Translations under genes and position numbers: made by a program
Origin: Odiellus spinosus
Lineage: Eukaryota > Arthropoda > Arachnida > Opiliones > Phalangiidae
Direction of reading: 5' to 3'
DNA length: 64,000 bases
Assembly: GCA_963920705.1 (NCBI GenBank)
Contig: OY987232.1
Span: forward strand, 5,583,200-5,647,199
The notes under the pieces: generated by a model
What the model saw: only the letters and a program-made list of their open reading frames with translations
Databases searched by the model: none
What the model was told of the DNA's origin: nothing
Part shown: piece after piece, positions 15,984 to 64,000 of the stretch
Layout of the letters: every line of letters begins with the position of its first letter
Position numbering within the stretch: the stretch's first letter is position 1

Positions 15984-15989
15984 GACGAG

Positions 15990-29500: not shown

Positions 29501-29728
29501 AATTATAAAAAAAAAGGTTGCTTCGCACCCTTAAAAAGGGCCCTCATCTATTTTGAATCAAACCCGTGAAGGGACACAAATTAATTGTTAGAGAAAGATA
29601 AATTTAATATGTTTTAAATTATAGGTTGTATAGTTAAATATTTTTTAAAAAACGGGTAAAGACGACCTAGGTCGTCTTTACCCGTTTTTTGGAATATATT
29701 TAATAATAAAACAAATCTTTGGAGTAGT
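29501..29728. repeat. Palindrome-family repeat at the Ty3-1 junction
   Basis: Homologous to 38840-39045. The stretch with CTTCGCACCCTTAAAAAGGG (29520-29540) and AATTAATTGTTAGAGAA lies inverted relative to that copy, whereas 29691-29728 (AAATCTTTGGAGTAGT) is in the same orientation. The two half-copies meet head to head at a perfect palindrome (29647-29690). Homology ends at 29728, where Ty3-1 sequence begins. Confidence 0.65.
29647..29690. repeat. Perfect 44-bp spacerless palindrome
   Basis: The left arm runs AAAAAACGGGTAAAGACGAC and the centre is CTAG. The right arm is the exact complement, GTCGTCTTTACCCGTTTTTT. There are no mismatches and no loop beyond the central bases. It marks the head-to-head junction of two element ends. 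Confidence 0.9.
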
Positions 29729-29821
29729 TGTTCGCGTCGCTCCCGGCGCCAACTCTACTTGGCCCCCGAATTCGGGCCTTTGGAAAGTCGCCCGCGCTCT
29801 TCTTCACGTATTACTTCGGAG

Positions 29822-30892
29822 ATGGCTACCGCGGCGGATATAGCTGCCGCTGTCACTGCAGCGTTAACCTCCCTGTCACTGAAGCAGGACCTACCGAAAT
29901 TCAACCCGGCCAACACCGACATTAACGACTGGCTCGAAATATTCAAGCAGACTACTCCCGCAGGCGATCGCGTGGCGTGCCTCGCCAAAGTACTTCAGGG
30001 GACCGCCCTCACTTGGCTCGCCCTGCAACTCCGCGACCCTACCTCTACCAACCGGAATTGGACTTCCTCGGAAACCGCTCTCAAAACGGAATTTGGCCGC
30101 TCCTCCCGAGCGCTATTCAACGAGTTACTGTCCCGCCAGCAGAAACCTGGCGAAGATTCCATAACCTACTACCGCGATGTTCTGGTCCTATGTTCCCTGG
30201 CCAACCCCACCATGTCCGAGCACGAAAAAACCAACCACCTCCTTCGCGGCCTCGCCCAGACCACTCGTGACAAAATGATCTTGATGGAACCGGCCTCAAC
30301 AACAGAGTTTCTGGCGAAACTTCAACTTCTGACCAGCATCACCAGTTCCACACCAGCCCCCGCTGTCACTTCATCCAGTGATAGCCGTATCTTGGACCTC
30401 CTCGCCACCGTGCTGAAGAACCAGTCCATCCCGGCTCAAGCCGTTTCATCGCCGTCCACTTCAGCCCCTCTGCTCTATACCCAATCCTCACACAATGATT
30501 ACGACTCTCTTCGTACCGAAGTCCGCGGGCTTCAACGTGACGTCGACGAGATCCGTCAACTCCTGCGCCGCCGCGACACAAGTCCTGGTATACGATGTTT
30601 TACTTGTGGCTCTCCCAACCACATCGCCACTTACTGCCAGACTCCCCGCGAATCACGCGGCCAAGATCGTTCCCGCCCGCAATACACCGAGCGCCGTGAC
30701 CACTATCGGCCACCGTCAAGCGAACGCCGGGATAGCAACCAGGGCACCCCTGCCTATCGCAACAACCATCGGGACCCGTATCGACCACCTTCGACCGATC
30801 GTCGTGGGCGCGATGGCTCCCCCTGGCGGGGTCGAGGTAATTCACCATATCCCAATCGACAATCGCGAAACGAGAGTCGACGACCGCAGTAG
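29822..30892 (+). CDS. gag: Ty3-1 Gag
   Basis: A 356-residue nucleocapsid precursor that would assemble the particle and package element RNA. I chose the ATG at 29822 (MATAADIAAAVTAALTSLSL); the frame is open slightly upstream but only with non-ATG codons. Residues 30-190 resemble the retrotransposon Gag capsid domain (NDWLEIFKQ, QGTALTWLALQL, LLSRQQKPGEDSITYYRDVL, LLRGLAQTTRDKMIL). A coiled-coil-like stretch (DSLRTEVRGLQRDVDEIRQL) follows. One CCHC knuckle, CFTCGSPNHIATYC, starts at residue 259, and the tail is rich in Arg, Asp and Pro. It ends with TAG at 30892. The pol frame opens at 30841, giving a 52-nt overlap in the -1 frame. Confidence 0.9.
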   Translation: MATAADIAAAVTAALTSLSLKQDLPKFNPANTDINDWLEIFKQTTPAGDRVACLAKVLQGTALTWLALQLRDPTSTNRNWTSSETALKTEFGRSSRALFNELLSRQQKPGEDSITYYRDVLVLCSLANPTMSEHEKTNHLLRGLAQTTRDKMILMEPASTTEFLAKLQLLTSITSSTPAPAVTSSSDSRILDLLATVLKNQSIPAQAVSSPSTSAPLLYTQSSHNDYDSLRTEVRGLQRDVDEIRQLLRRRDTSPGIRCFTCGSPNHIATYCQTPRESRGQDRSRPQYTERRDHYRPPSSERRDSNQGTPAYRNNHRDPYRPPSTDRRGRDGSPWRGRGNSPYPNRQSRNESRRPQ

Positions 30893-33800
30893 GAGAACGC
30901 AGGCCGTCTAACCACATCATCCCTCTCCTACTCAGCTCCACCGACAAACTAATCTCTATCCCGGCCTCATTGCAAAATGTCCCCATCAACGTCATCATCG
31001 ATTCGGGGAGCACCAAAAATATAGCCAGCTCGAACATTTGCCATAAACTCGGCATCTTGATTCACCCGGCGGCTCACATTCAACTTCGGGTAGCGAATGG
31101 ATCCCTCATTAAACCACTTGGGATTGCCAATCTTCCCCTTACCATAGGCTCCAAGATCTACGATATCGACGCATTAGTCATCGACAACTTCAACCACACT
31201 CTCTTACTTGGTTTGGAGTTCTGTTCTACCCAGGGGGTAGTTATCAGCTTCCAGACTCGTACTATCAGCCTCCACGAGTTTACACACGCTCTCCCTGATC
31301 ACATTTTCGACCACGCCTTCAAGATCCGCAACGCCACAGACACCACAATTCCACCAGAAACTGAATTGGCACTAGAAGTTTTTTACCCGAACTCCTCCGA
31401 CACGCTTCTGATTGAGGCCGCCGACAACGCCTTCGAACGTTTTGGAGTACTCATCTGCAAAACTCTAACAAATTTCACAAGGGGTACGGCTCTTATCCGC
31501 GTGGCTAACCCACACCATCGTGCCATTTTCATCCCTCGTCACGCACACATCGCCACGGCACACGAAATCTTAGACCTCCACCTTATAGAGGGTACCTCTG
31601 ACCCGACGACGACCACTACCCTCCCCGATGATTTGGACATTGGCAACCAACTCTCGGACTTAGACTCACAACAATTGCGTCACCTCCTTCAGAAACATGC
31701 CTCTGTGTTCTCTCGTCACGAGTCGGACCTCGGCCGGACTTCACTCATCACGCACAATATCTGTACTGGTGACGCCGCCCCAGTTCGATCACAGCCATAC
31801 CGGAAATCCATTACAGAGCGCGAGATCCTTAAAAAAGAAGTGTCGAAACTCTTCAAGGCCAACATTATTCGGGAGTCATGCAGTCCTTGGGCCGCCCCAG
31901 TAATCCTGGTAAAAAAGAGAGACGGCTCCTGGCGCTTCTGCGTCGACTGGCGAAAATTAAACAAAGTGACTAAAAAGGACGTCTACCCTCTACCCCGCAT
32001 TGACGACGCTCTGGACAAATTAGCCGGCTCAAAGCTGTTTACCACTCTCGACCTCGCATCCGGTTACTTTCAGGTCGAGGTGGCCGAGAAGGACAAAGAA
32101 AAAACTGCGTTCGTCACCCCTGACGGACAATACGAATTCAATGTCCTGGGTATGGGCCTCTGCAACGCCCCGGGAACCTTCCAAAGACTCATGTATAGAG
32201 CACTCGGTGGTCTTATGTGGAAAGTGGCAGTTGCCTATCTGGACGACATTGTCATCTTCTCCGCCACACTCCCAGAGCACCTGGTTCACCTCGATCAAGT
32301 CTTGACTTGCTTGCATCAGGCCCACCTCAAGATTAAACCTAGTAAATGCTCGTTTGCTAAAACTCGGATCAAGTTTCTGTGCCATATCATCGATGGGGAA
32401 GGTATCTCACCCGACCCTAAAAATCTTGCTGCCGTCGAACATTTCCCACCACCGAAAACTATCCGTCAAGTACAGCAGTTCCTCGGATTGGCTGGCTACT
32501 ACCGCCGTTTCGTGAAAGGATTTGCACAAATCGCAAAACCTCTCTTCCATCTCACGAAGCAGGATGTACCATTCCTATGGACAACAGAAACTGAATCAGC
32601 CTTTCGAACTCTTCGCACCTGCCTGATCACCCAACCGATCATTCAACATCCTCAATGGGATCAACCATTTGAAATATTCACGGACGCATCTGCCTACGGT
32701 ATCGGCGCTATCCTAAAACAACGAATAAACCACCGCGAACACGTCATCGGCTATTCTAGCCGATTATTGAACGCAGCGGAACAAAACTATAGCCCTACAG
32801 AGCGCGAGTGCTTGGCTATCGTTTACGGTGTGCAAAAATTCCGTCCGTATATCTATGGCCGGCCAGTCACCATCGTCACAGACCACCACGGACTCTGCTG
32901 GTTGACATCCGTCAAGAACCCAAATGGCCGCCTTGCCCGTTGGTCATTGACACTTCAGGAGTTCGACCCAATAATTAAACACAAAGACGGTCGCCGCCAT
33001 TTGGACGCCGACGCCCTCTCACGAGCCCCGCATGAGCCACCTCCAGATATCACCGACACTCTCCTCGTGACGACTACCACACCGTTCCTCAACAACATCC
33101 CTTCACCGGTCAAACGGCTCGATACTTTTGACATACCGGCCCTCCAGAGACAAGATCCGTATCTGCACAAACTAATTACGTATTTTGAGGATCCGGATGG
33201 ACCCAGCAACAGGACCCTTCGCCGAGCCTCCGCCTGCTTTGATTTCCGTAACGACCTTCTCTATCGCCGCGTCTACACTTCCACCGGCATTCACCACGCC
33301 CTCGCTGCCCCGAAAGAGATGCGTTCTGCCATATTATACGCTCTCCACGACGATGTCCAGACTGGTCACCCGGGATTGCACCGAACATGGGACCGTATTC
33401 GCACCCGCTTCTGGTGGCCAAAAATGATGTCGCATGTCAATAACTACGTGTCGTCCTGTATGGCCTGTCAACGTCACAAAAACTACCCATTCAAACCTCC
33501 TGGCTTTCTACAGCCCATCCCGCCTACCACCAAACCATTCCAACAGATCGGAATCGACAAACTGGGTCCCTTCCCGGTGTCTCACGATGGCAACGTACAT
33601 ATCATAGTCTGCACCGACTATTGCTCAAGGATGGTTGTCGCCGCCGCAGTACCACGCGGTACCGCCGACGAAACTGCACGGTTCCTCGTTAACCAGGTTA
33701 TACTCAAATATGGGGCTCCTCGTGACCTCATCTCGGACAGGGGTACAGAATTTCTGAATAAAACGGTCGGCGAAATCACCAGGCTCTTCAGCACCCACCA

Positions 33801-34650
33801 CCATCGAACGACGGCGTACCACCCTCGCACCAACGGCCTCGTGGAACGCTTCAATAAAACACTGGCTGGGATGATCTCACAGTACGTCTCAGAAGATCAT
33901 AAGGACTGGGATCGTTTTCTGCCGTATCTCGTATTTGCGTACAACACCTCCGTCCATGAAACCACCGGATACTCTCCATTTTTCCTGCTACATGGGTATG
34001 ACGCCGATTTGATGTTGGACGCCGCCTTGAACCTTCCCGCTACCACTATTCAAAGTCAATTCGGCCTGGAAAACATCACGTACGCCCACCGGGCCCGGGA
34101 TATTGCAGTAGAACGCCACGCCATATCTCAAGCAAAAAGCAAGGTTCGATTCGATACTAGCCGACGGGCCGTTCCATTTGGGGAAGGAGACCTTGTCTTT
34201 ATTCAGACCCCCCGCCGTATCCCAGGACGTAGCGAAAAGTTACTTCACCAATACAGCGGACCCTACCGGATCATCCGTCAAACCGCTCCCAATAATTTCG
34301 AGATCACCGACTCTACAGGGAAAAAATCTGACATCGTATCGGCTGAAAGAATGAAACCCTATCACCCGCGTACGGATTTCGGGGAAGGTATTCCATCTCC
34401 CCTGCCTCGACAAGTAGCCTTTCACTCCATTATCGACACCTGCGCCTTCTCTCCTCGTGACCCCCCTCCGCCCTTTTTATCCCTCCCACCACGACGCCCT
34501 CTACTACACATCAACCCTCCTCCCCGACCCCCCGCCGATCTTCTCGGACTCGGCGAAGTCCCGACCGATATTTTTTCCCTATATAAGACTCCAAAATCCC
34601 ACTCTCCCCTCATTCTCAGTTCTTCGCTTGACCACACCACTCCTTCCTAA
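30841..34650 (+). CDS. pol: Ty3-1 Pol (protease, RT, RNase H, integrase)
   Basis: The frame opens at 30841 inside gag and has no ATG at its start, so it should be made as a -1 frameshifted Gag-Pol. Order of domains: aspartic protease with IIDSGSTKNIAS (about 30994-31030); reverse transcriptase with FTTLDLASGYFQVEV, NAPGTFQRLM and catalytic YLDD at 32236; RNase H with TDAS at 32680; and integrase. The integrase zinc residues are H (33346), H (33367), C (33457) and C (33466), and the catalytic residues D (33556), D (33736) and E (33844), the last two spaced D35E. A GPY/F motif, SGPYRIIR, follows at about 34255. Every signature residue I checked is present. The C-terminus is Pro-rich and overlaps the next ORF in the +1 frame. 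No chromodomain is evident. Confidence 0.95.
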   Translation, partial: FTISQSTIAKRESTTAVGERRPSNHIIPLLLSSTDKLISIPASLQNVPINVIIDSGSTKNIASSNICHKLGILIHPAAHIQLRVANGSLIKPLGIANLPLTIGSKIYDIDALVIDNFNHTLLLGLEFCSTQGVVISFQTRTISLHEFTHALPDHIFDHAFKIRNATDTTIPPETELALEVFYPNSSDTLLIEAADNAFERFGVLICKTLTNFTRGTALIRVANPHHRAIFIPRHAHIATAHEILDLHLIEGTSDPTTTTTLPDDLDIGNQLSDLDSQQLRHLLQKHASVFSRHESDLGRTSLITHNICTGDAAPVRSQPYRKSITEREILKKEVSKLFKANIIRESCSPWAAPVILVKKRDGSWRFCVDWRKLNKVTKKDVYPLPRIDDALDKLAGSKLFTTLDLASGYFQVEVAEKDKEKTAFVTPDGQYEFNVLGMGLCNAPGTFQRLMYRALGGLMWKVAVAYLDDIVIFSATLPEHLVHLDQVLTCLHQAHLKIKPSKCSFAKTRIKFLCHIIDGEGISPDPKNLAAVEHFPPPKTIRQVQQFLGLAGYYRRFVKGFAQIAKPLFHLTKQDVPFLWTTETESAFRTLRTCLITQPIIQHPQWDQPFEIFTDASAYGIGAILKQRINHREHVIGYSSRLLNAAEQNYSPTERECLAIVYGVQKFRPYIYGRPVTIVTDHHGLCWLTSVKNPNGRLARWSLTLQEFDPIIKHKDGRRHLDADALSRAPHEPPPDITDTLLVTTTTPFLNNIPSPVKRLDTFDIPALQRQDPYLHKLITYFEDPDGPSNRTLRRASACFDFRNDLLYRRVYTSTGIHHALAAPKEMRSAILYALHDDVQTGHPGLHRTWDRIRTRFWWPKMMSHVNNYVSSCMACQRHKNYPFKPPGFLQPIPPTTKPFQQIGIDKLGPFPVSHDGNVHIIVCTDYCSRMVVAAAVPRGTADETARFLVNQVILKYGAPRDLISDRGTEFLNKTVGEITRLFSTHHHRTTAYHPRTNGLVERFNKTLAGMISQYVSEDHKDWDRFLPYLVFAYNTSVHETTGYSPFFLLHGYDADLMLDAALNLPATTIQSQFGLENITYAHRARDIAVERHAISQAKSKVRFDTSRRAVPFGEGDLVFIQTPRRIPGRSEKLLHQYSGPYRIIRQTAPNNFEITDSTGKKSDIVSAERMKPYHPRTDFGEGIPSPLPRQVAFHSIIDTCAFSPRDPPPPFLSLPPRRPLLHINPPPRPPADLLGLGEVPTDIFSLYKTPKSHSPLILSSSLDHTTPS

Positions 34651-51405: not shown

Positions 51406-52216
51406 GTAAGACTCGAATTAGTATTTAAACAAACGTGCTGTACTAATAACTCGCTCTTTTAGAATAGCTTAAAGTATGGTGTACTAGACGAATGCAGAGT
51501 ATTCGGACATGCATGTCATGTATGGACGGGCTCATGGAAATGCGATGGAAGCTCGGCGGCTGTATCAAGAGAACTTTCCTCAAGGACAAATACCAAATCT
51601 CCAAAAATTCACGGCTGTTGACAGACGTTTAAGAGAAACCGGTAATCTTCAACCCGCTGGACCTCAAGGGCGAGGCGTTCCCGAGCACATCGAAGAGCAA
51701 GTTTTAACAATTTTCGAGGAAAATCCTTCAACAACCACCAGAAGGGTTGGCAGACAATTGATCGTCAATCATGTTCTTGTCTAAAAAATCCTTAAAGGAC
51801 ACTAGTGCCACCCTTATAATTTGCAATCGTTCAATCGTTAAACGAAGCGGACTATCCGAGTCGGTTGAATTTTGTCAGTGCTTTTTGAACCGGGTGAACG
51901 ACTTGGATTTTCCTCGAATTCTGCTTGTATCTGACGAGGCAAATTTTTCCCGTGACGGAATACTCAATTTACACAACCATCATGAGTGGAGTCAATAAAA
52001 ACCCCCAAGCTACTAGTGTAAGGTCACATCAAGTGCAATTTAGTTTAAACCCTGGTGCGGAAGGGTCGGAGATAATTTATTTGGACATGTATTTCTGCAA
52101 CCCAGGCTAAATGGAGAGGCTTACTTGCACTTCCTGGAAAATGATTTAAGAGTACTCGACGACATACCCTTAAGCAGGGTTTTTAGAGTATTGGGGAGGT
52201 TAGAGGCCGAACGTAT

Positions 52217-52849
52217 TGCGACGGCCAGCCGCATATCAATAAAATTTAATTAGAATATTTAGCCCCCTTTCCCAATTTTTCTACTATTAAACATCCCCAA
52301 TTAAAAGAATCGTAACAATATACAAAAAAAAAAAAACCATTTTTAAATTTCTTATGTCTAGCCCCCCTATCCCCACGCTACCCGATAAAAAGAACCCACA
52401 TTAAAAAAAACTAACCCCCCTGCGCTGACCGTCACTTTCTCTCGCCCCAGAAAAACTTAAGTTGAAAATGAGATTAGATGATCTCCAACCTTGGAAGAGG
52501 GAACCCACTTTAGTTAAACAGAAAGTTTTTGTTTAGTAACTGTAAGACTAGTAGTCAAGATAATCTGTTTTTGTTCGTTGTTAAGAAAATAAAATCCCTC
52601 TGAGCATATTGGTCAATTTGAATTAATTTAAAATTATGTCGAGGGAGAATAAATGGTCAGACAGGATACCGGCCGGCGAGAATTCACCATCATCGGACGA
52701 AGAGAATCAGATATCTCTAACTCATTAGCTTTACGATAGATATTTATTATTTTAAAGAGAAAGGGGTTTGAACCATTAATGGGAAAATTCGCTGTATCCA
52801 TTCCTAAATTCCTTGACAAATGGAATCTTGAGAATAGGAAACGGTTACA
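52217..52849 (+). repeat. Ty3-2 5' LTR (633 bp)
   Basis: TGCGACGGCCAGCCGCATAT at the start and GGAAACGGTTACA at the end. AATAAA-type signals occur (for example in GAGAATAAATGG near 52646). I do not see a canonical TATA box. Confidence 0.95.
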
Positions 52850-52853
52850 GAAT

Positions 52854-52866
52854 TGGTGCCGCGACC
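52854..52866 (+). promoter_or_regulatory. Ty3-2 primer-binding-site candidate
   Basis: TGGTGCCGCGACC starts 5 nt after the LTR. The TGG start complements a tRNA CCA end, as expected for a minus-strand primer. I cannot assign the tRNA with confidence. Confidence 0.6.
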
Positions 52867-53449
52867 ATACCCCTTTCCCTTCGCCGCTTTTCGGCTTTTC
52901 TTCTCCTCGCCTTCCCGGTCCGCCATCTTGGCCTCCCCGACCTCGGCTTCAATTTTTTTTCCGTTCGCCTTTTTCGGCCCGTTCTTTTTTGGTGGGGGTG
53001 GTGATAGGCGTTATCTCGCCTATTCATTTGAAAAATTCCTTATTTTAGTTAATGGAAATTTTCCACGACATTATCATTCTGATCTATTACTTTTGATTTT
53101 GATATTTATAATTATAAAACCTTTTTAACAAAACTTAGATGAATTAAACACACAATTTTGAGAAATATTTTCCTATTAATAGCAGGTTATTCAAACACTT
53201 TTATTTAATAAACGAAAATATTATTGTGGCATAAAACTGACGTCACCAAATAAAAATTTAGCTTTTACTACACCCCAAGATACAACCCCTTCTTTGTCAT
53301 CAGGGTCCGAGATTAGTATTAATTGGGAACAACTACAACCAAACGATTCTGGAGAACAATCAGTAGAATCACCTTCCCCTTTAATTACTTATAATATACA
53401 GAATTTGTTACGCCCTTCACGATTACAAATAAATAAGGGAGAATCTATA
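52867..53449 (+). other. Ty3-2 5' leader
   Basis: About 580 bp between the primer site and the gag ATG. A CT-rich, GC-richer part (52868-53000) is followed by AT-rich sequence. It would hold the packaging signal and, if ORF3 is spliced, the donor site. The gag frame is already open from before 53294 but without ATG. Confidence 0.5.
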
Positions 53450-56203
53450 ATGGCGACATCACCACCTACTACAACTGTGCCAACTACTAGTACCCCTCCT
53501 CCTTCACCACATACTCCTGTAATAAGCCCACCTCTATCCCCGCATACTCCTACAGTAAGTCCACCATTAACCATGGCTGGGATAGTAAGTTCACTAAGTT
53601 CTGCAGTAAATATATTAACAATAAATTCCCCACCTGGGAATCAAAGACGTTTAATAAGAGTTGGTACCATACCAAGTGTGGGAAGTATAGCAGGGAGCCC
53701 TGGGTCTCCAGTGTCATCATCTCCACCCGCAATGGGATTACCGTTTGGTAGTATATTAGGGAACACCCAGTTGGGTTCAGGTATGCCTATACTTAATGCC
53801 TCTGGGCATGCCAACCTTACTGGCTCGCTACAAGCGATGTTAACTACGACTACTACAACAACAATGGCAACTGGAACCATGACAACATCTTTGGTTCAAC
53901 CATCGGGAATATTACCTATATCAACACTAACTTCAAGTACTTCGGGTCTGACTGGTCTTCAAGCGTCTCAACAACCGTCAAGTACACAGTCCATCGCTCA
54001 AACTGGAGGTTATGGACAGATACCTTCTGTTAGTACCACATTTGGACAACAGTCACAAACCCAAGCTCCATATCAATATCCTGGATTCATGATACCTCAA
54101 CTTCAATCACAACCAATGACATTGTCCGCAACAACTGTAACAGCAATGGCAACTGGAACTATATCAACGCCTATTGTTCATCCAACGGGAATATCATTTA
54201 TTCCAACGATAACGCCGAACGTTGCTGGAGTTTCAGGTCCTCAAGTATTACAACAGACAACAGTGTCAAAACCAATGAATCCAATAGGAAGTCTTGGTCA
54301 GATACCTTATACAGGCGCCATATCTGGACTAACTCAAGGTCAAGTTCCTCAACAGCAGCAATATCAAATTCCAGGCGTCCAACAACAACAATTTCAACCA
54401 GTGACAACGCAAATAACGCATCCCATAGGATTTAATCCTCAAGCAACGAGTACGTTTGTTCAAGGACCTTCTATAACATCTACACCTGCTCAAGCTTATC
54501 AAGGATGGTATCCTCCACAAACACAGTTGCCACCACAACCAACTTATCCAACTCAACCACAACCAACTTATCCAACTCAACCACAACCGGGATGGTTCCC
54601 AATCCAGACACACTATCAACAAGGTCCTCCCTCGCAATTCCCTTCGGCTTCTCAACCCCCAGGTATTCAGGGAATATCTCCAATTCAAGGGACACCTGTT
54701 CAAGGTCAAGGACAAATATCTCCACCTTTGTCTCCTCGATCTACATCTATGCTAAGGACCGTGACTAAGGTCTTGAAGGAGAATAAAGGCCGCAGTTTAA
54801 AGGAACCTCCTGCCCGTTTAGTCTTCTATGGGACGCACCAAGAGAAGGTCTCCGAATTCTTGCGGGATCTGGATGAATATGCTAAATTCAATGAGCTAAC
54901 GGAAAACCAAAAGATGGGACTCTTGCCAATGGTGATAAAGGCACAAGCTCAGACCTGGTACAGAGGTTTACCCCAGCCGATGGGATGGAATGAATTCGAA
55001 GGGAGGATGAAGCGACATTATCGAGCCGAACAGAAGGAAGCTTTAGCCAAGGCCGAACTAAATCTTCGGTTTCAAGGGCCAAATGAAACCATAGAGGAAT
55101 TTTTCAGCCACTATGCAAGAGTAAATCAAAGTTTGACACCTCCTATCCCGGATAAGGAATTACAAGATATGATCAGGAGAAACATTCGTCCTGAATTTAG
55201 AGGAATTCTAACTTTCATGAGTGCCGCTACCGTCGGAGATCTTCATGATCACTGCCTCAAGTTGGAAGAGAGTCTTGGACTAACGAGAACTACTATGTAT
55301 GGGACAACTATTCAACAGTACGGAACATACCTTCCTCAATTAACATCTCAAGGTCAATTGACTACTCAGATCCCTCAACCACCATTTCAACCATCTCCAT
55401 ATCAACAACTTATGGCGACCTCTCAACAATATACAACGACAACGCTTCAACCGACTACTCAGGTTCCTCAATTACCAGCCCAACCGTTTCAATATCAACA
55501 GTTTTCAACAATTCCGCAATACTCAATGGCAACGATTCAACCTTCTCCGGCGACGCAACACATAAATACTCCAACGACCCCAAGTTCGACTCCAACGATG
55601 TATTTACCGAAGGAAACTCCTCAAGCGCAGTATCCTACCGCAGGAATTCTTCAATCAAGTCCTTCGCTCACAGGATTACCAGCGAAAATATATATTCCTA
55701 CTGGAAATCCTCAGTTACCTACACCTGGAGCATCATGGCTGAATTATCTACAACAACTACAACCTACTACTATATCAGCAAATACGTTTCCGCAAATACG
55801 ACCAACGACTCCCGGTCCTTTTGAACAAATCCCTCAATGTCAGACAGGATATACAGTTCAACCGCAACCCGTTGTTCCGACGTATCCATTAGTAGAACAA
55901 GGAACAGGACAAACTCCGTCACAACCAGTTAGAAGAACCACAGCACGATCAAATGTTCAGGGACAACAACGAATTCCATCAAGGACACCGAGAATAATTA
56001 CTCCTTCGTATAATCGACCTCAAGGACAACAATTTACCAGACCGGCAATTCTACAACCGAATCTCACGTGTTTCACCTGCAACGGTAGAGGTCATCTTTC
56101 AAGAGACTGTCCGACAGTTCGAGTACCAAGAACGACTCGTCCGGAAAACATCGGAGCGGGAGGCCAACAACAGGGGCAACGCCCTCCCGCACCGAACCAA
56201 TAG
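53450..56203 (+). CDS. gag: Ty3-2 Gag
   Basis: 917 residues from the ATG at 53450 (MATSPPTTT), about twice the usual Ty3/gypsy Gag length. Residues 1 to about 440 are low-complexity Ser/Thr/Pro/Gln-rich, with short repeats such as PQPTYPTQ. The capsid-like domain spans about 455-615 (LVFYGTHQEKVSEFLRDLDE, QAQTWYRGLP, LNLRFQGPNETIEEFFSHYA, DMIRRNIRPEFRG). A second Gln/Thr/Pro-rich stretch follows, then one CCHC knuckle, CFTCNGRGHLSRDC, at residue 874. The role is particle assembly and RNA binding. It ends with TAG at 56203. The pol frame, -1 relative to gag, opens at 56089, giving a 115-nt overlap; I see no canonical X-XXY-YYZ heptamer in it. Confidence 0.9.
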   Translation: MATSPPTTTVPTTSTPPPSPHTPVISPPLSPHTPTVSPPLTMAGIVSSLSSAVNILTINSPPGNQRRLIRVGTIPSVGSIAGSPGSPVSSSPPAMGLPFGSILGNTQLGSGMPILNASGHANLTGSLQAMLTTTTTTTMATGTMTTSLVQPSGILPISTLTSSTSGLTGLQASQQPSSTQSIAQTGGYGQIPSVSTTFGQQSQTQAPYQYPGFMIPQLQSQPMTLSATTVTAMATGTISTPIVHPTGISFIPTITPNVAGVSGPQVLQQTTVSKPMNPIGSLGQIPYTGAISGLTQGQVPQQQQYQIPGVQQQQFQPVTTQITHPIGFNPQATSTFVQGPSITSTPAQAYQGWYPPQTQLPPQPTYPTQPQPTYPTQPQPGWFPIQTHYQQGPPSQFPSASQPPGIQGISPIQGTPVQGQGQISPPLSPRSTSMLRTVTKVLKENKGRSLKEPPARLVFYGTHQEKVSEFLRDLDEYAKFNELTENQKMGLLPMVIKAQAQTWYRGLPQPMGWNEFEGRMKRHYRAEQKEALAKAELNLRFQGPNETIEEFFSHYARVNQSLTPPIPDKELQDMIRRNIRPEFRGILTFMSAATVGDLHDHCLKLEESLGLTRTTMYGTTIQQYGTYLPQLTSQGQLTTQIPQPPFQPSPYQQLMATSQQYTTTTLQPTTQVPQLPAQPFQYQQFSTIPQYSMATIQPSPATQHINTPTTPSSTPTMYLPKETPQAQYPTAGILQSSPSLTGLPAKIYIPTGNPQLPTPGASWLNYLQQLQPTTISANTFPQIRPTTPGPFEQIPQCQTGYTVQPQPVVPTYPLVEQGTGQTPSQPVRRTTARSNVQGQQRIPSRTPRIITPSYNRPQGQQFTRPAILQPNLTCFTCNGRGHLSRDCPTVRVPRTTRPENIGAGGQQQGQRPPAPNQ

Positions 56204-59200
56204 CCCAACAGGAACTCAGTCGTACTGCTCCAAGGCCCCAAACCTATCAACTATCAGCAATACGACGAAGACGGGGCTTGCAGAGAAGGAAACCTCATAC
56301 GATCACGACAATATTCGAACACGGAAAATTAAACACAAGAATAGACAATGGAGCAGAAGTCTCCATGATTAGCGCTGACCAATGGATGAAGATACGACAA
56401 TTTAGAGGCGAAGCGTATGTCCCCTTCGAGAAGATATCTGAATGTATAGTTATGGGTGATGGAAGATACACCTTCACAAAAGGATCCATTCTCTTGGATT
56501 TCGAAATCATCTTCGAAAATCAGAAGAACCGGATGTTCACCCATGAATTTCACATCGTTCCGTCTCTCTTATGCGATGCCATTCTTGGTCAAGACTTCTT
56601 AGAGGATTGGGGAATGAAAATCGATTTCGAGAATTTAACTTGCTCGATTCAAGGAGAAACTCTCAAGTTCATTGGATGGTCTAAAGATAAAGGACCCCCG
56701 TCCCCAACCATGGTAAAGAACGTAACCGAAGCTGTCGAAGCAACAGGATTGCCAGATCAAAAGAAGAAAGAATTAAAGGATCTTTTGCTAAACTTTCCGG
56801 ACCTCTTTAGCGACAAATTAGGACATACAAGTCTCGTCGTACACGAAATCCATACAGGAGATGCGAAACCGGTTAACAAAAGAGCATATCGAGTCAGCGA
56901 TGCCAAAAAACGGATTATCGAAGATAATATTCAAGAAATGTTAAAGGACGGCATCATACGACCTTCTACCTCGCCATGGGCTTCTCCTGTCGTTATTATC
57001 GAACAAGACGATGGATCCGGAACCGGAAAAACTAAAACTCGATTTTGCGTGGATCTCCGAGAGGTCAACGCAGTTACCACAAAAGATCCTTACCCGATTC
57101 CTCGAATAGAAGAAACCCTAAACAAGATGGGCAAGCCAAAATACGTCACCGCACTGGATCTAAAAAGTGGATATTGGCAAGTTGAATTGGCTCCTGATGC
57201 CAAACCGAAGACCGCCTTCATTACCCACGCTGGTAAATACGAGTTCAACGTACTAGCCTTTGGTTTATGCAACGCTCCTAGTACGTTCCAGCGGGTTATG
57301 GATGAAATCTTCAGAGATGGCGAACCATTTTCCATCGTCGTCTATCTTGATGATATCCTCATAGCGTCCGAAACATGGGAAGAGCACTTAAACGCTCTGG
57401 AATACGTAATGAATCGTCTCAAGAATGCGGGATTAACTTTACAGTTGAAGAAATGCCGCTTTTCCAAGTCCGAGACCATTGTCCTAGGACATATCATCAA
57501 TGAAAAAGGGATATTCATCGACCCTTCGAAAATAAAGGCCATCCAAGAATTCCCAAGACCAAAAACAATAAGACACGTCCAACGTTTTCTCGGTATGGCC
57601 GGTTGGCATCACCGGTTTATCCCAAACTTCTCCGAAATAGTAGCACCCATCAATCATCTCAAGAAGAAAAATGTTCCATTTCGTTGGGAAGAAGATCAAG
57701 AACAAGCCTTCCAACAAATAAAGGACGCCATTGCAACAGCACCAGCTTTAGCTCCGTATAAAGCGGATATACCATGTATTCTAACAACCGACGCGTCCGG
57801 AACCGGATTGGGAGCAATGCTTTCCCAAGTACAAGAAAATGTAGAAGTACCAATAGCATACGCTAGCCGAAGATTATCCAAAGCCGAAACCAATTATAGT
57901 AACACCGAACGAGAATGCCTAGCAATCTATTGGGCCGTGGGATATTTTAGACCATACTTGGAAACGCTTCCGTTCACCGTCATTACGGACCACAAAGCTT
58001 TACAATGGCTATTCACATTAAAGGAACCACATTCAAGATTGGTAAAATGGGCTATGTACCTGCAGACATTCGATTTTAAAATCATGCACAAGAAAGGAGT
58101 TGAAAATGTCGTAGCAGACGCTTTATCTCGAGCCCCATTGGGATTATTAGTAATGCCGTTTCATCGATTATCAACTTCTGAAGAATCACTGCGAATCTCC
58201 GACAACGAAGAAAATAGAGAAAATCCAAGGGAGAATGTTTTACCACCATTTCCACACGCAAATTTCCATATCTTCAATAGAAATGACATCGTTACTGCTC
58301 AGCGAGAAGATCCAAGCATGGAGGAAATCATCGAAAGACTATCAAGAGAAAATGCTCCCCGAGATCGGATATATATATATTGCGCAATAATCTCGTATAC
58401 AGAAGAGAAACTGGCAGATATCCTGAACGAATATCTTCCAACAAGATTAAGACCAGAAACTCTTCGTTTACTTCACGATCATCCTCTCGCTGGTCATCGC
58501 GGAAGAGATAAAACTATTGCAAAAATAGAAGCAAGATTTTGGTGGCCCTCACTACGAGCAGACGTAGCGAAATACGTGAAGGAATGTCTCCTATGTCAGC
58601 AGTATAAGATAAGGAACACTCGTACTCCCGGACTCATGAAGTCGACCGAACCAACGGCTCCATGGGATAAAATAGGCGTGGACATAATGGGTCCATTCCC
58701 AATTAGTAGAAAGGGATACCGATACTTGATCGTATTCGTCGATTATATGACCAAATACGTCGAACTGGTTCCTATAGTCGCCATGACAGCTGACGCATGC
58801 GCAAGAGCTCTGAAGAAGGTCATCTGTCGATGGGGCGCTCCCAAGCAAATACTAAGTGATCGTGGAACTCAATTCGTCTCAACTCTATGGAAAGATACTT
58901 GCAAGCTATTCCGGATAACTCCTATATACACTACGCCGTATCATCCACAATCGGATTTGACTGAAAGAGTCAATCGAGTCCTAGGAGAAACGATTTCTAT
59001 TTACGTCGGAAATAACCATCGAACTTGGGACGAAACGTTAAATTCATTAGCTTTCGCTATAAACTCCACTCCGCACGATACTACAAGACGCTCACCATTT
59101 TATCTAAATATGGGACGAGAGCCCAGGCTTCCATGGGATTTCGATATCGGAATGCCTGTAGAGGAGTTCGAAGATCGATCAGAAACTTTAAGAACTCTTC

Positions 59201-60948
59201 GAGAGCAATGGGAATTAACTAAAGGATTTTCCAGACTAGCCCAAGCTAAACAAAAGAAGTATTATGACCGAAGACGAGCGGATCTTGAATTTGAACCAGG
59301 AATGCTAGTCTGGAAAATGACTCATCCATTGTCAAGAGCCAATATCGGAAGGATGGCAAAGTTATGTCCGAAATGGTCAGGTCCCCATAGGATAGTCGAA
59401 AAACGAAATCCATTAGTATATATTTTGGAAGACGCTATTACTGGAAAAAATATTGGACCAATAAACATTGCCCAATTAAAATTGTATCATGCGAAAGATA
59501 TTCAAATCGAGGAAATAGAACAGCCTCTACCTGCTGCTCCGGAACCGGAAGTACTTCCACCCGAAGAAAACTTACCAAGGGAGAATGAAGTAGAACCTCC
59601 ACAAATATCTGATAGAGACAAAGACAGAAGATCCTCGGGATCGCAAGTCCGAGTACTTACAAAAGAAAGGCAAATATCTCAAGAAAAGAAGAAGGCTCCT
59701 GCGACTGATTCAAGCGAACGTATGCGTCGACATCTAAGGAAAAAGAGACCTCGTCGATATATATCCTCCTCGTCATCAGAAGATGAAATACCATCACCTG
59801 TTATTAGGAAAGAAGCAAAAACTCCTCCAAGGATTCCCCAACAAAGGAGCCCAAACGTACTCCTTAGGCGACCTCAAGAAAGTTCAGAATCAGGAACTGA
59901 CAGTGACGATGATTCAGGAGGAAAACGAATAGCTAAATTGAAGAAGCAACAAGAGACTGTACCAAAACAAATTGGTTTACCATCAACAGGACTAGCGCTA
60001 GCAAAGGACATACCTTTACCGAAGACGAGCACGGATACACCAACAAAGCCAACTGCTGAATCAAGCAAGAAAACTTTACGAAAAACCCCGGATCTTAGCT
60101 CTAGCGAAATTTCCTCAGGAAGAAAGTGGGAAGAAGAATACCCTATCCTATACACAGGTTCTTCGACAAGTGAAGACCTCAGACAGGAAGATATACGACT
60201 CAAGGAGAAACAATCTTTACTAGAGTCACCTCGAAAGGAGTCCAATAAAGATCTAGACAGAGTAGAAACTCAAAAACGGATAAGAGAATCATCTTCAATG
60301 AACTCTGAAAAACAAAATGATAAACGTTTAAAATCGAGTCGTGTCACTCATACTTTAAGTCCAAGTCGAAGCTCCTCAGAACAGGAATCAACGTCGCTCA
60401 GTACGAGAAAGGAAAAAGAAAAATCAAGGGAAAGTGACACGAAACCCAAAACGAAGAAACGTGAACGAGAAATTTCATCGTCTCCACCAGAATTGGAAGC
60501 CGCTATACAAAGAGGGCGAGAGATTCTAAAAAGGAAACGACAAAGAAAAGAAATTCCTTATTTAAGAAGAATACGAGAGGATATGCCAAGTACTAGCATG
60601 ATTGGTCACGTCTCAAACGAAGAACATATGGAAACCGAAGATCCAGAATTACTTCCGGAAATGGAGACACGCTTAGAATTACCCTTTAGAAAAGGATGGA
60701 GTCGAGAAGTGTGCTACAGACACACAACACACCCCGTAAAGCTAATTATGGATATATATTATTATCCTCCAGTAGCTCCTAGGAAACGATTACGTTCTCC
60801 GAATGAAGTTCAAGCTTATTTAAGAAAACATAATATAGAAAATGTTTCAGTAGACAATTTCGATTTTAAACGCCGTCATATAGCTTGTTCCCCTTGGGAA
60901 AGAATTACAACCGCGAAAGAAAGAAAACAAAACCCTACAGCTTGTTAA
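56089..60948 (+). CDS. pol: Ty3-2 Pol with C-terminal MBD-like domain
   Basis: Opens inside gag with no ATG, so expression should be by -1 frameshift. The protease has IDNGAEVSMIS (Asp codon at 56344), with Asn where Ser or Thr is usual. Reverse transcriptase follows with VTALDLKSGYWQVEL and YLDD (57343), RNase H with TDASGTGLG (57787), and integrase. The integrase has zinc residues H (58480), H (58495), C (58585) and C (58594), catalytic D (58681), D (58858) and E (58963), and a GPH/F motif, WSGPHRIVEK (about 59372). About 390 charged residues rich in Ser, Arg, Glu and Lys follow (59500-60690). The last 85 residues contain GWSREV (60694), MDIYYYPP, KRLRSPNEVQAYLRKHN and VDNFDFKRR (to about 60873), matching the methyl-CpG-binding domain pattern. 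At roughly 1620 codons it is much longer than a typical Ty3 Pol. Confidence 0.9.
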   Translation, partial: RSSFKRLSDSSSTKNDSSGKHRSGRPTTGATPSRTEPIAQQELSRTAPRPQTYQLSAIRRRRGLQRRKPHTITTIFEHGKLNTRIDNGAEVSMISADQWMKIRQFRGEAYVPFEKISECIVMGDGRYTFTKGSILLDFEIIFENQKNRMFTHEFHIVPSLLCDAILGQDFLEDWGMKIDFENLTCSIQGETLKFIGWSKDKGPPSPTMVKNVTEAVEATGLPDQKKKELKDLLLNFPDLFSDKLGHTSLVVHEIHTGDAKPVNKRAYRVSDAKKRIIEDNIQEMLKDGIIRPSTSPWASPVVIIEQDDGSGTGKTKTRFCVDLREVNAVTTKDPYPIPRIEETLNKMGKPKYVTALDLKSGYWQVELAPDAKPKTAFITHAGKYEFNVLAFGLCNAPSTFQRVMDEIFRDGEPFSIVVYLDDILIASETWEEHLNALEYVMNRLKNAGLTLQLKKCRFSKSETIVLGHIINEKGIFIDPSKIKAIQEFPRPKTIRHVQRFLGMAGWHHRFIPNFSEIVAPINHLKKKNVPFRWEEDQEQAFQQIKDAIATAPALAPYKADIPCILTTDASGTGLGAMLSQVQENVEVPIAYASRRLSKAETNYSNTERECLAIYWAVGYFRPYLETLPFTVITDHKALQWLFTLKEPHSRLVKWAMYLQTFDFKIMHKKGVENVVADALSRAPLGLLVMPFHRLSTSEESLRISDNEENRENPRENVLPPFPHANFHIFNRNDIVTAQREDPSMEEIIERLSRENAPRDRIYIYCAIISYTEEKLADILNEYLPTRLRPETLRLLHDHPLAGHRGRDKTIAKIEARFWWPSLRADVAKYVKECLLCQQYKIRNTRTPGLMKSTEPTAPWDKIGVDIMGPFPISRKGYRYLIVFVDYMTKYVELVPIVAMTADACARALKKVICRWGAPKQILSDRGTQFVSTLWKDTCKLFRITPIYTTPYHPQSDLTERVNRVLGETISIYVGNNHRTWDETLNSLAFAINSTPHDTTRRSPFYLNMGREPRLPWDFDIGMPVEEFEDRSETLRTLREQWELTKGFSRLAQAKQKKYYDRRRADLEFEPGMLVWKMTHPLSRANIGRMAKLCPKWSGPHRIVEKRNPLVYILEDAITGKNIGPINIAQLKLYHAKDIQIEEIEQPLPAAPEPEVLPPEENLPRENEVEPPQISDRDKDRRSSGSQVRVLTKERQISQEKKKAPATDSSERMRRHLRKKRPRRYISSSSSEDEIPSPVIRKEAKTPPRIPQQRSPNVLLRRPQESSESGTDSDDDSGGKRIAKLKKQQETVPKQIGLPSTGLALAKDIPLPKTSTDTPTKPTAESSKKTLRKTPDLSSSEISSGRKWEEEYPILYTGSSTSEDLRQEDIRLKEKQSLLESPRKESNKDLDRVETQKRIRESSSMNSEKQNDKRLKSSRVTHTLSPSRSSSEQESTSLSTRKEKEKSRESDTKPKTKKREREISSSPPELEAAIQRGREILKRKRQRKEIPYLRRIREDMPSTSMIGHVSNEEHMETEDPELLPEMETRLELPFRKGWSREVCYRHTTHPVKLIMDIYYYPPVAPRKRLRSPNEVQAYLRKHNIENVSVDNFDFKRRHIACSPWERITTAKERKQNPTAC
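60694..60873 (+). other. MBD-like domain at the end of Ty3-2 Pol
   Basis: About 60 residues with the family pattern: GW near the start, then a strand with D-I-Y-Y-Y-P-P, then R-L-R-S aligning with the F-R-S-K strand that holds the second DNA-contact Arg of MBD proteins, then a helix with an E..AYL core, and finally FDF. The Asp before YYY and the Arg of LRS are kept. The first Arg finger of MeCP2/MBD2 has no obvious counterpart, so methyl-CpG reading is uncertain. Confidence 0.7.
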
Positions 60949-60989
60949 TTTTTATTCTAATCCTATTGAGGAGACAAACATTAACGATA

Positions 60990-60999
60990 AATTTTTCAG
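60990..60999 (+). promoter_or_regulatory. Splice-acceptor-like site before ORF3
   Basis: AATTTTTCAG ends immediately before the ORF3 ATG. The upstream sequence is T-rich (TTTTTATTCTAATCC), with a branch-point-like CTAAT. No donor was pinned down in the leader. Confidence 0.45.
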
Positions 61000-62175
61000 A
61001 TGGAACTATCTACGGATCATTATGGCAAAGAAGGGAGAAGAGAATGGTCTACTGGAGCCGGACGCGGGAGCCCTAACAAACACAACGATCCAAAAATCCC
61101 ATACAACAAAGGTCGTGGAATTTTATTCGATTGGTATCGCGATTTCCTCGCGGAAGATACTGAACACAATCGTTGCGTCGAATCGGATGGGAGTCAAATT
61201 ACTCAAGTCGCCCCTAAGTCAGATCAATTCGAAGACGTTTCAGACTCAGAATTGGGAGCCTGTGCGATGCCCCTCCCTCTTCATTCAATTTCCCGATCTG
61301 GAATCACTCGAGAAGAAAAAACCGTACTACAAGAATTGAGCTACGAGACCATAACTGCTTATCAACAATCTTCCAGTTCAGGAGAAGGAGATACAGCATC
61401 ACGAGTCACGAATCTAAAGAAAAAAGAAAGAATAAATTCTCCTCTGCATTCCAGTGACGTACGCCTCGAGTCACAAAGACTGGAAATAATGTATACTGTC
61501 TCCCATAACCACGTCGACTCTACTTCAGACTTGAATCAACAATTAGAAACCCGAAGAATCATGGTAGGCCCTCTCCAATCACCTTCGAATCATAATACTA
61601 CCAAGGAGAGAAACGAGGAATCTTCATCGGTAGTACTCCGAAATACGACAAGAAACCAGGAACCACAAGGAGTCCGCTCTTCACAAGAACGTCCTCTTAG
61701 GGACACCATAAGCCCTTTCTCCACTCGAGATAATCCGGTCAATGATAATCACACCCTAACCCTCTTCAAGGCCTATGGATCGTTGCCTGTCCCACCGTAT
61801 CGCTTTCTACTCCTATCAGACGAAGCAAAAAGACATCCTCCTCCTTTGCAATCGTCAGCGCCACTGGGAAGACAATTCTTCCCAATCGTCTGGCCAGGGA
61901 TAACTAGAATGGAGGAAACCCAATGGTATCCAATAACCGAAGAGGGATGGCCCGTAGTCAAGACTCCCAAAGAAAACGAACCCTGCGTTGCCTGCAGCGT
62001 CTTTGGGAAGCACTTTGCAAAGTGGTGCCCTCGCAGGTACAAAATCAGACAACGTATAGGAGAACTAAAATCGCAAAGAAAGGAAAAAGATAAACGACCC
62101 CAAAACCCACCGAGAAATGAACCAAAAGGACCAGATGATTCACCAACAGGAGGACATCCTTCCGGCTCAATTTGA
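61000..62175 (+). CDS. Ty3-2 ORF3, unknown protein with CCHC-like motif
   Basis: 391 codons from a true ATG at 61000 (MELSTDHYGKEGRREWSTGA) to TGA at 62175. It is 51 nt after the pol stop, in the same frame, but with five stops between. The ATG directly follows TAAATTTTTCAG, a good splice acceptor, suggesting a spliced subgenomic mRNA. The middle is polar and Ser/Thr/Glu-rich. A conserved-looking block near the end (YGSLPVPPYRFLLLSDEAK, RQFFPIVWPGITRM, EEGWPVVKTP) leads into CVACSVFGKHFAKWC (61984-62028), a C-X2-C-X5-H-X4-C arrangement one residue longer than a retroviral knuckle, and then a basic tail. No signal peptide or membrane segment, so not an envelope protein. A nucleic-acid-binding accessory role is a guess. 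Confidence 0.75.
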   Translation: MELSTDHYGKEGRREWSTGAGRGSPNKHNDPKIPYNKGRGILFDWYRDFLAEDTEHNRCVESDGSQITQVAPKSDQFEDVSDSELGACAMPLPLHSISRSGITREEKTVLQELSYETITAYQQSSSSGEGDTASRVTNLKKKERINSPLHSSDVRLESQRLEIMYTVSHNHVDSTSDLNQQLETRRIMVGPLQSPSNHNTTKERNEESSSVVLRNTTRNQEPQGVRSSQERPLRDTISPFSTRDNPVNDNHTLTLFKAYGSLPVPPYRFLLLSDEAKRHPPPLQSSAPLGRQFFPIVWPGITRMEETQWYPITEEGWPVVKTPKENEPCVACSVFGKHFAKWCPRRYKIRQRIGELKSQRKEKDKRPQNPPRNEPKGPDDSPTGGHPSGSI

Positions 62176-62226
62176 ACTTGACTATTGATTTTTCTGCCTA
62201 ACTCTTTCTAATTATATTTTGTAAAC

Positions 62227-62259
<33 letters not shown>

Positions 62260-62277
62260 GGGGGGGGGGGGGGAGAT
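62227..62277 (+). promoter_or_regulatory. Ty3-2 polypurine tract
   Basis: A run of about 29 A residues, TTTT, then 14 G residues and AGAT, directly before the 3' LTR. The G-run is the likely plus-strand primer. The A-run length is prone to assembly error. Confidence 0.75.
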
Positions 62278-62924
62278 TGCGACGGCCAGCCGCATATCAA
62301 TAAAATTTAATTAGAATATTTAGCCCCCTTTCCCAATTTTTCTACTATTAAACATCCCCAATTAAAAGAATCGTAACAATAAACAAAAAAAAAAAAAAAA
62401 AAAAAAAAAAAACCATTTTTAAATTTCTTATGTCTAGCCCCCCTATCCCCACGCTACCCGATAAAAAGAACCCACATTAAAAAAAACTAACCCCCTGCGC
62501 TGACCGTCACTTTCTCTCGCCCCAGAAAAACTTAAGTTGAAAATGAGATTAGATGATCTCCAACCTTGGAAGAGGGAACCCACTTTAGTTAAACAGAAAG
62601 TTTTTGTTTAGTAACTGTAAGACTAGTAGTCAAGATAATCTGTTTTTGTTCGTTGTTAAGAAAATAAAATCCCTCTGAGCATATTGGTCAACTTGAATTA
62701 ATTTAAAATTATGTCGAGGGAGAATAAATGGTCAGACAGGATACCGGCCGGCGAGAATTCACCATCATCGGACGAAGAGAATCAGGTATCTCTAACTCAT
62801 TAGCTTTACGATAGATATTTATTATTTTAAAGAGAAAGGGGTTTGAACCATTAATGGGAAAATTCGCTGTATCCATTCCTAAATTCCTTGACAAATGGAA
62901 TCCTGAGAATAGGAAACGGTTACA
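62278..62924 (+). repeat. Ty3-2 3' LTR (647 bp)
   Basis: Matches 52217-52849 from TGCGACGG to GGTTACA. The length difference comes mainly from a longer A-run at about 62384-62411. It is followed by the GTAT target copy. Confidence 0.95.
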
Positions 62925-62928
62925 GTAT

Positions 62929-63790
62929 CTCTCACGCAAAATCCCCTAGTTCACAGGCGTTCGAAGCGGGAGGAATCGCTGAAGAGGAGGGGAAAGAAGA
63001 GAGGGGCTCAAACCTTAATATTATACCGGGAGGGCCATCTAGCAACTATTTTCAGAGAATAATGTTCAGGCGGCAAATTTGAATAGAGGATTTTGGTTTT
63101 CTATTCTACATTCTGTTGAGTAACAATTTATACTTCTTTGTCTTACTATTAGGGTTTTAGTGTTAATATTGAATAATTTAAACAGGGTTCGTACAAACCA
63201 GGAAATATCAGAATAAGATTATTCCTGAGGGTAAATTATATTTTTCAAAATTAAGGGAATTAGTTTGCGGTTTCGAACAGTGGATAAAATTTTTCATTTA
63301 ATTAAAACCTGGTAATATCAGGGGAATTTGTAAAAAAAAAAACCTGAAAAATATCAGATTCTTAATTTGTTTGAACCTTGTTAAATTATAATTTTAAAAT
63401 AATTAATATATTATTATTATAATTATTATTATTATTATTGAAATATTATTCTCAAATTTAGCATAAAACCCTGAGTCCCTGACCCCGAATCAAGGACTTC
63501 CACGAATCCGCGCTTAACAAAATCACGCTTACACAGTACATATAGTATTCTAGTTTAAGAAAGGGCCATCTAGCTCCAGAGAGGAATAAAATTTTAATTT
63601 AGCCAAAAATAAATACTAAAAATATTATAAGAATATAAGTAGATTTACACAAAGAATTTTAGAATACATTTTAATAAAAAAATAAGGATTTTTTTTTTTT
63701 ATTATTTTATACGTTCTGTCGCTTGGTGTTGGAACAAACTAATATTTAGAGTTTTGTGGGTGGTGCTCCAAACTCAAGAGATAACCAGAA
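62929..63790. other. Interior of the CAGGG TIR element
   Basis: Non-coding. The first 150 bp are purine-rich (GAAGAGGAGGGGAAAGAAGA). 63180-63380 contains a diverged inverted pair with AACAGGGTTCGTACAAACC and GGTTTGAACC-like complements. (TTA)n follows at 63405-63440, then AT-rich sequence. No transposase frame. Confidence 0.5.
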
Positions 63791-64000
63791 AAACCTTCGG
63801 CCTCTAACCTTCACAATACTCTAAAAACCCTGCCTTAAGATTGCGACAAACAATGTGTTTTATGCACGACGGAGCCCAACCACATTTCAGTCTTCGAGTT
63901 AGAACCATCTTCATGCCACGTTACCTTAGAGGTGGATAGGACGAGGCGGAGCTGTTGCGTGGCCAGCCAGATCGCCAGATTTACATCCGTGCGATATTTT

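What the first reader, a model, noticed from the sequence alone, without database searches (positions are those of the whole stretch)
60694..60948. Methyl-CpG-binding-domain-like module fused to a Ty3/gypsy Pol
Seen: the Ty3-2 pol frame runs uninterrupted through a charged tail into a stretch with GW, DIYYYPP, LRSPNEVQAYL and FDF in MBD order and spacing. Known: some Ty3 elements carry a chromodomain at this position that guides integration to specific chromatin. Inferred: an MBD could steer integration toward, or away from, methylated DNA, or recruit repressors. I am not aware of this as a standard Ty3 architecture. The first methyl-contact Arg seems absent, so the preference may differ.
Basis: partly seen in the sequence, partly recalled or inferred. 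Interest (0 to 1): 0.88.

Follow-up and report, generated by a model that had tools for sequence, protein, structure and literature searches.

The report
Ty3 retrotransposon carrying a methyl-DNA reader
A family of jumping genes in this animal genome carries, fused to the protein that inserts it into the genome, a domain of the kind that recognises methylated DNA, which may steer where it lands; a similar fusion in another arthropod element family was reported in 2019, so the idea is known but this version looks new.

Summary
Window 60667-60876 is a methyl-CpG-binding domain (Pfam MBD, E 6.6e-13) in one frame with RT, RNase H and integrase of a Ty3-type element, between near-identical LTRs. 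One reader detail is wrong: the first methyl-contact arginine is present (34 of 34 aligned rows). The fusion is a family trait: of 42 uninterrupted frames of at least 1200 aa with a related integrase (from a capped search), 35 end in an in-frame MBD. MBD-bearing integrases form one clade (20 of 66 rows, 93/95), including two proteins from other, unnamed contigs. The MBD is under purifying selection. Capture of an MBD by an arthropod retrotransposon was published in 2019 (text not held; Copia by my recall), and this genome also holds Copia elements with an MBD between integrase and RT. The Ty3 case is thus a second architecture; its MBD groups apart from the Copia one, though one shared origin is not rejected (p 0.275). 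Steering of integration to methylated CpG is inferred; flanking CpG content gave no support.

The parts
52213..52216 (.). Target-site duplication GTAT, left copy
52217..52849 (+). 5' LTR (TG..CA)
   Evidence: LTR alignment; direct repeats
52854..52866 (+). Primer-binding-site-like sequence TGGTGCCGCGACC
   Evidence: Read; identification as PBS by recall
53183..56203 (+). Gag-type ORF (zinc knuckle 5e-6; Retrotrans_gag 1.4e-4, just below its cut-off); first 572 residues match nothing
56089..60948 (+). Pol frame (stop to stop): weak protease-like match below cut-off, RT, RNase H, integrase, linker, MBD
57028..57498 (+). Reverse transcriptase RVT_1 (8.6e-35)
57685..58071 (+). RNase H-like domains PF17919 and PF17917 (8.9e-36, 1e-36)
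58438..58611 (+). Integrase H2C2 zinc-binding domain (4e-22)
58657..58947 (+). Integrase core, rve (2.7e-14)
59344..59430 (+). Integrase C-terminal SH3-like stretch (weak in this copy, E 0.01, below cut-off; 17 of 22 family pieces match PF24626)
59431..60660 (+). Charged, serine-rich linker
60667..60876 (+). Methyl-CpG-binding domain PF01429
   Evidence: E 6.6e-13; family alignment A3
60718..60720 (+). Arg, first methyl-CpG contact (MeCP2 R111 equivalent by recall); Arg in 34 of 34
60751..60753 (+). Asp (MeCP2 D121 equivalent by recall); Asp in 34 of 34
60793..60795 (+). Arg, second methyl-CpG contact (MeCP2 R133 equivalent by recall); Arg in 32 of 34
60877..60948 (+). PPWE-like end and short tail of Pol, with stop codon
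60991..62175 (+). Third ORF, 394 aa, no Pfam match, no membrane-like stretch, one zinc-knuckle-like Cys/His cluster (by eye)
62278..62924 (+). 3' LTR (TG..CA), preceded by a G-rich polypurine tract
62925..62928 (.). Target-site duplication GTAT, right copy

Best explanation
This is a young LTR retrotransposon of a Ty3-type clade whose Pol ends in a methyl-CpG-binding domain joined to integrase by a linker. Shown: the MBD is real by profile, in frame, shared across the clade, under purifying selection, and keeps the residues that read methylated CpG in known MBDs. Inferred: when integrase carries the cDNA into chromatin, the MBD acts as a reader that tethers the complex to CpG-methylated DNA (in an arthropod with DNMT1, probably methylated gene bodies or methylated repeats), at the position that a chromodomain occupies in other Ty3 lineages. 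The MBD was probably captured once at the base of this clade, separately from the Copia capture known from arthropods.
For: MBD profile match; 22 of 22 family pieces match MBD and none lists a chromodomain; first Arg, Asp, Tyr-Tyr and Ser of the reading site invariant in 34 rows, second Arg in 32; MBD dN/dS 0.03-0.36 where dS could be computed, lower than the linker in 21 of 24 comparable pairs; 35 of 42 intact frames keep it; one integrase clade (93/95) that includes P0123 and P0124 from unnamed contigs; host has a DNMT1-like locus (assigned by eye) and an MBD2/3 gene; closely similar copies at different sites, so recent movement. Ty3 MBD profile is nearest BAZ2 chains, Copia MBD profile nearest MBD2, and the two sit on opposite sides of a 99/86 branch.
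Against: No binding or integration data. Pooled CpG o/e of 16 flanks (14 of other copies, 2 of the window copy) is 1.05, near the window background median 1.10 (31 chunks), so no sign of landing in historically methylated, CpG-depleted DNA. CpG o/e of the window is 1.13 and of the element 0.98, so neither looks heavily methylated in the past. No DNMT3 was matched. A single origin of Ty3 and Copia MBDs is not rejected (AU p 0.275). One diverged member, L072, lacks the Asp and was not in the 34 rows; three copies with a stop inside the MBD were also left out of them (L006, L009, L014). Fold not predicted with confidence.
Confidence: 0.58

Rival explanations
1. The domain works like the TAM/MBD of BAZ2 proteins: a general DNA or RNA tether without methyl preference, holding integrase on chromatin.
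For: BAZ2B and BAZ2A are the best solved matches of the Ty3 MBD; flanks show no CpG depletion.
Against: The Ty3 MBDs keep R-D-YY-R-S, whereas BAZ2A has Lys, Glu and Lys at the three contact positions and host BAZ2 has Glu for Asp and Asn for Ser. That BAZ2 domains lack methyl preference is recalled.
Confidence: 0.2
2. Counter-silencing: the MBD on Pol or particles covers methylated DNA and competes with host MBD2/3, protecting the element from repression rather than choosing sites.
For: Host MBD2/3 with the reading residues is present.
Against: Position next to integrase in both Ty3 and Copia elements points to an integration role; element CpG o/e 0.98 gives no sign of heavy germline methylation.
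Confidence: 0.12
3. The Ty3 clade obtained its MBD from Copia MBD elements, or both from one capture, by exchange between elements.
For: Both kinds share one genome and the same side of integrase; AU test does not reject one clade (p 0.275); profile-profile match 99.3%.
Against: Copia MBDs group with MBD2/3 and MBD4 (99/86) apart from Ty3 and BAZ2; nearest solved relatives differ.
Confidence: 0.2
4. Passenger domain without function in the element.
For: Not every copy keeps it: for 7 of 42 intact integrase frames no in-frame, uninterrupted MBD was shown.
Against: Low dN/dS, invariant reading residues and retention across integrases 44-100% identical to the window's.
Confidence: 0.04

Closest known systems
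MBD captured by an arthropod retrotransposon family (de Mendoza, Pflueger, Lister 2019, Genome Res 29:1277, PMC6673714; title seen in reference lists, paper not held; its being Copia is recalled and fits a citing passage in PMC11721087)
   Same: MBD fused next to integrase in an LTR retrotransposon of an arthropod; this genome holds such Copia elements
   Different: Here Ty3-type Pol (RT-RNase H-integrase-MBD at the very end); in the Copia elements of this genome the MBD lies between integrase and RT; different nearest MBD relatives
Chromodomain-bearing Ty3 elements (chromoviruses; targeting paper Gao et al. 2008 seen only as a reference entry)
   Same: Chromatin reader at the C-terminal end of Pol; several database relatives list PF00385
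   Different: No chromodomain in 22 of 22 pieces; reader is an MBD
BAZ2A/BAZ2B MBD (TAM) domain
   Same: Best solved-structure matches of the Ty3 MBD
   Different: BAZ2 lacks part of the methyl-reading residues that the Ty3 MBDs keep
MBD2/MeCP2/MBD4-type methyl-CpG readers
   Same: Same reading residues R, D, Y, R
   Different: Ty3 MBDs group outside the MBD2/3+MBD4+Copia branch
Retrotransposons that captured cytosine methyltransferases (de Mendoza 2018, described in passages of PMC12344493)
   Same: Retrotransposon with part of the DNA-methylation machinery
   Different: Writer, not reader

Membership tests
Methyl-CpG-binding domain (PF01429) | Significant profile match | tested here: met
   48.5 bits against cut-off 21; 22 of 22 family pieces
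Methyl-CpG-binding domain (PF01429) | Methyl-contact residues Arg, Asp, Tyr, Arg | tested here: met
   34/34, 34/34, 34/34, 32/34; equivalences by alignment to MBD4, MeCP2 numbering recalled; L072, outside the 34, lacks the Asp
Methyl-CpG-binding domain (PF01429) | Fold | tested here: inconclusive
   Single-sequence models pLDDT 42 and 44; order strand-strand-strand-helix in the second only
Methyl-CpG-binding domain (PF01429) | Preference for methylated CpG | not testable with these tools
   Needs a binding assay
Ty3-type LTR retrotransposon (Metaviridae) | RT, RNase H, integrase in that order with H2C2 and rve, LTRs and target duplication | tested here: met
Copia-type MBD retrotransposon | Integrase before RVT_2-type RT, MBD between them | tested here: not met
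   Window: RT before integrase, MBD last; Copia set has RVT_2 in 12 of 13 pieces
Chromodomain Ty3 (chromovirus) | C-terminal chromodomain | tested here: not met
   No PF00385 among the families matched by the 22 pieces
BAZ2 TAM domain | Groups with BAZ2 in a tree | tested here: inconclusive
   Ty3 and BAZ2 lie together on one side of a 99/86 branch in an unrooted tree; each is its own group

The most novel reading that the evidence does not exclude
A whole clade of animal Ty3 retrotransposons captured a methyl-CpG reader once, independently of the Copia capture and from a different host MBD source, and uses it to choose integration sites; two retrotransposon superfamilies in one host genome have thus converged on fusing the same reader next to integrase.
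Probability: 0.5. Interest if true: 0.75.

Novelty: new variant of a known kind. Interest (0 to 1): 0.62.

Why it matters
Many arthropod genomes are sparsely methylated and what that methylation does is debated. A retrotransposon clade that keeps a methyl-CpG reader beside integrase would suggest that parasites exploit the mark, and its insertions could record where the mark lies in the germline. With Copia elements carrying an MBD in the same genome, it offers a natural replicate: two integrases, two MBD types, one methylome.

Tried and rejected
Chance match: rejected by E-values and family conservation. Host exon fused by assembly: rejected by LTRs, target duplication and many copies. Frame artefact: rejected. 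A direct search with the tail alone in the protein database found nothing (36 candidates, none at E<=0.01); the family profile did. Viral contigs gave no relative of the integrase. Insertion-site test by CpG o/e: no signal in 16 flanks. Of 14 other-copy flanks I scanned 9 ORFs from 7 with Pfam: one (L083) has RRM and poly(A)-polymerase-like matches over cut-off, L079 a SNF2-related and L084 a P2RX7_C match below cut-off; L081 lies in Copia-like sequence. No control set, so no conclusion. Paper searches listed no paper that by title or start of abstract reports a Ty3/gypsy MBD element; I saw passages of eight citing papers and not the 2019 paper (not held).

Rows dropped before counts. MBD alignment A3 (34 rows) was made from the 41 Ty3 stretches without six near-duplicates and the truncated L049; the 41 already left out L006, L009 and L014, which have a stop inside the MBD, and do not include L070 and L072, fetched later. 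Copia alignment A4 used 11 of 16 (four near-duplicates and the array copy L066 left out). One search used 66 of the 215 integrase rows that passed its length filters: 18 MBD rows of this genome (4 of the 22 pieces of A1 were too short there), the window's other Ty3 element, P0123, P0124 and the 45 most similar others; 'no MBD' for the database rows rests on their precomputed Pfam lists. The 42 frames are those >=1200 aa without stops among 125 scored of 2304 candidates. Of the 7 not counted, C261 has a stop inside the MBD, C6:3665734 and C4:2875665 have an MBD match nearby in another frame, C17:6466628 was read and lacks it, and C9:892361, C11:1667639 and C2:26913145 gave no MBD match and were not read.

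Full report
What is there. The window lies in an unnamed 443-Mb genome of 286 contigs. Exact (TTAGG)8 words are plentiful, with a long array near the end of contig C1 (only the first places are listed), which suggests an arthropod (telomere motif by recall; species not identified). A complete-looking LTR element spans 52217-62924: LTRs with 4 mismatches and 16 gap columns over 651 alignment columns and a 4-bp duplication GTAT (direct repeats also). It has a gag-type ORF, a Pol frame 56089-60948 with RT, RNase H and integrase, and a third ORF 60991-62175 with no Pfam match and no membrane-like stretch.

The domain. The last 115 residues of Pol match Pfam MBD with E 6.6e-13; within the 915-residue integrase piece the value is 1.8e-11. 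The nearest solved relatives by sequence are BAZ2B and BAZ2A. A profile of 34 homologous tails finds 33 chains at E<=1: BAZ2, MBD4, MBD2, MeCP2, MBD3, MBD1, MBD5, MBD6, SETDB2 and one attachment-region-binding protein. In the 34 rows two arginines (one of them the first contact), Asp, Tyr-Tyr, Pro and Ser are fixed, and the second contact Arg is kept in 32.

It is a family trait. Searching the whole genome with the MBD gives 150 scored matches of 283 candidates, identity 100% down to 35%; 28 of the 150 lie in uninterrupted frames of at least 1200 aa (my count of the table). Starting from the integrase instead, 125 of 2304 candidates were scored; 42 of them have uninterrupted frames of at least 1200 aa, and 35 of these end in an in-frame MBD, by matching places and frame lengths (L070 and L072 were also read). 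Pfam on 22 pieces: MBD 22, rve 18, H2C2 17, no chromodomain; some pieces are too short to reach the integrase. Copies of five subfamilies, 92.5-100% alike (gaps counted) over the compared 3' stretches, sit at different sites, which shows recent movement.

Selection. Among 34 pairs printed from four subfamilies, dN/dS of the MBD is 0.03-0.36 where dS can be computed, mostly 0.06-0.25. In 21 of the 24 pairs where both values exist it is lower than in the linker; the three exceptions all involve L027. Some dS values are large and rough. One diverged member (L072) has lost the Asp.

One clade, wider than this host. A tree of integrase pieces (66 rows) puts all 20 MBD-bearing rows on one side of a branch, support 93/95; the program warns of long branches, P0123, P0124 and L061 among them. 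P0123 and P0124 come from unnamed contigs of about 5 kb; they were the top two hits, and the only two of the 120 listed (of 159) that list an MBD, in the family-profile search. P0123 nests inside the clade (99/99). In the single-sequence integrase search 0 of 120 listed (of 150) list an MBD.

A second kind in the same genome. A BAZ2B query also found Copia elements: of 13 pieces 13 match MBD, 12 RVT_2 and 11 rve; in L053, shown in full, the MBD lies between integrase and RT. Their MBD profile is nearest MBD2 (2.1e-17), unlike the Ty3 one (BAZ2B, 3.7e-11). In an MBD tree the Ty3 rows form one group (95/78), and Copia sits with MBD2/3 and MBD4 (99/86). With 98 columns this is not decisive: one clade of Ty3 plus Copia is not rejected, p 0.275.

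Host. PF00145 finds two loci; from their residues I read them as DNMT1 and DNMT2 (assignment by eye and recall). No DNMT3 was matched, which is not proof of absence. MBD2/3 was found through its MBDa domain, with an upstream MBD that keeps the reading residues. A BAZ2-like exon is present.

Mechanism. Shown: fusion, conservation, selection, intact reading site. Inferred: reading of methyl-CpG and steering of integration, by analogy with chromodomains at the same place (recalled). My only test, CpG o/e of 16 flanks, pooled 1.05 against a median of 1.10 in 31 chunks of the window, does not support landing in CpG-depleted DNA; 3 of 16 flanks print below 0.80. The sample is small, flanks are short (228-3460 bases) and methylation itself was not measured.

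What is known. A 2019 paper reports, by its title, capture of a functionally active MBD by an arthropod retrotransposon family. I saw only the title in reference lists and one citing passage on copia elements gathering in CpG-dense regions (PMC11721087); that the family is Copia is my recall. No Ty3 counterpart appeared by title or start of abstract in the papers listed. Because the 2019 text was not read, I cannot exclude that Ty3 elements are mentioned there.

Verdict: real, in frame and widespread in this genome; new variant of a known kind.

Noticed in passing
G000:C4:3460926-4274800: 41 MBD matches (418-aa frame in most), spaced mostly about 17.5 kb apart in both orientations. One of them, L066, reads as a Copia MBD piece: looks like a large amplified array holding part of a Copia-MBD element.
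   Followed up: partly
window 60991-62175; L070, L072: A third ORF follows Pol. In L070 and L072 a downstream frame ends in a CX2CX4HX4C zinc-knuckle motif, and the window copy has a looser Cys/His cluster; not env-like by hydropathy.
   Followed up: partly
window 52174-52217 and 63790-63833: Inverted 44-nt arms flank the element, so it may sit inside a DNA transposon with terminal inverted repeats.
   Followed up: no
P0057, P0179, P0195, P0200, P0219: Ty3-type proteins listed with PHD (P0057, P0179) or SET plus chromodomain (P0195, P0200, P0219) in precomputed Pfam columns: other chromatin modules on Ty3 Pol.
   Followed up: no
G000:C9:892361-893320: A related integrase lies in an uninterrupted frame of 3823 aa, the longest listed.
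   Followed up: no
window 13736-15998 and 16504-18927, minus strand: Two Copia-type stretches in several frames (integrase in both, RVT_2 in the first); no MBD in the pieces scanned.
   Followed up: partly
window 29660-34650: Another Ty3-type element with a Pol frame of 1269 aa, whose last 249 residues show integrase C-terminal domains but no MBD; its integrase, a long branch, lies outside the MBD group.
   Followed up: yes
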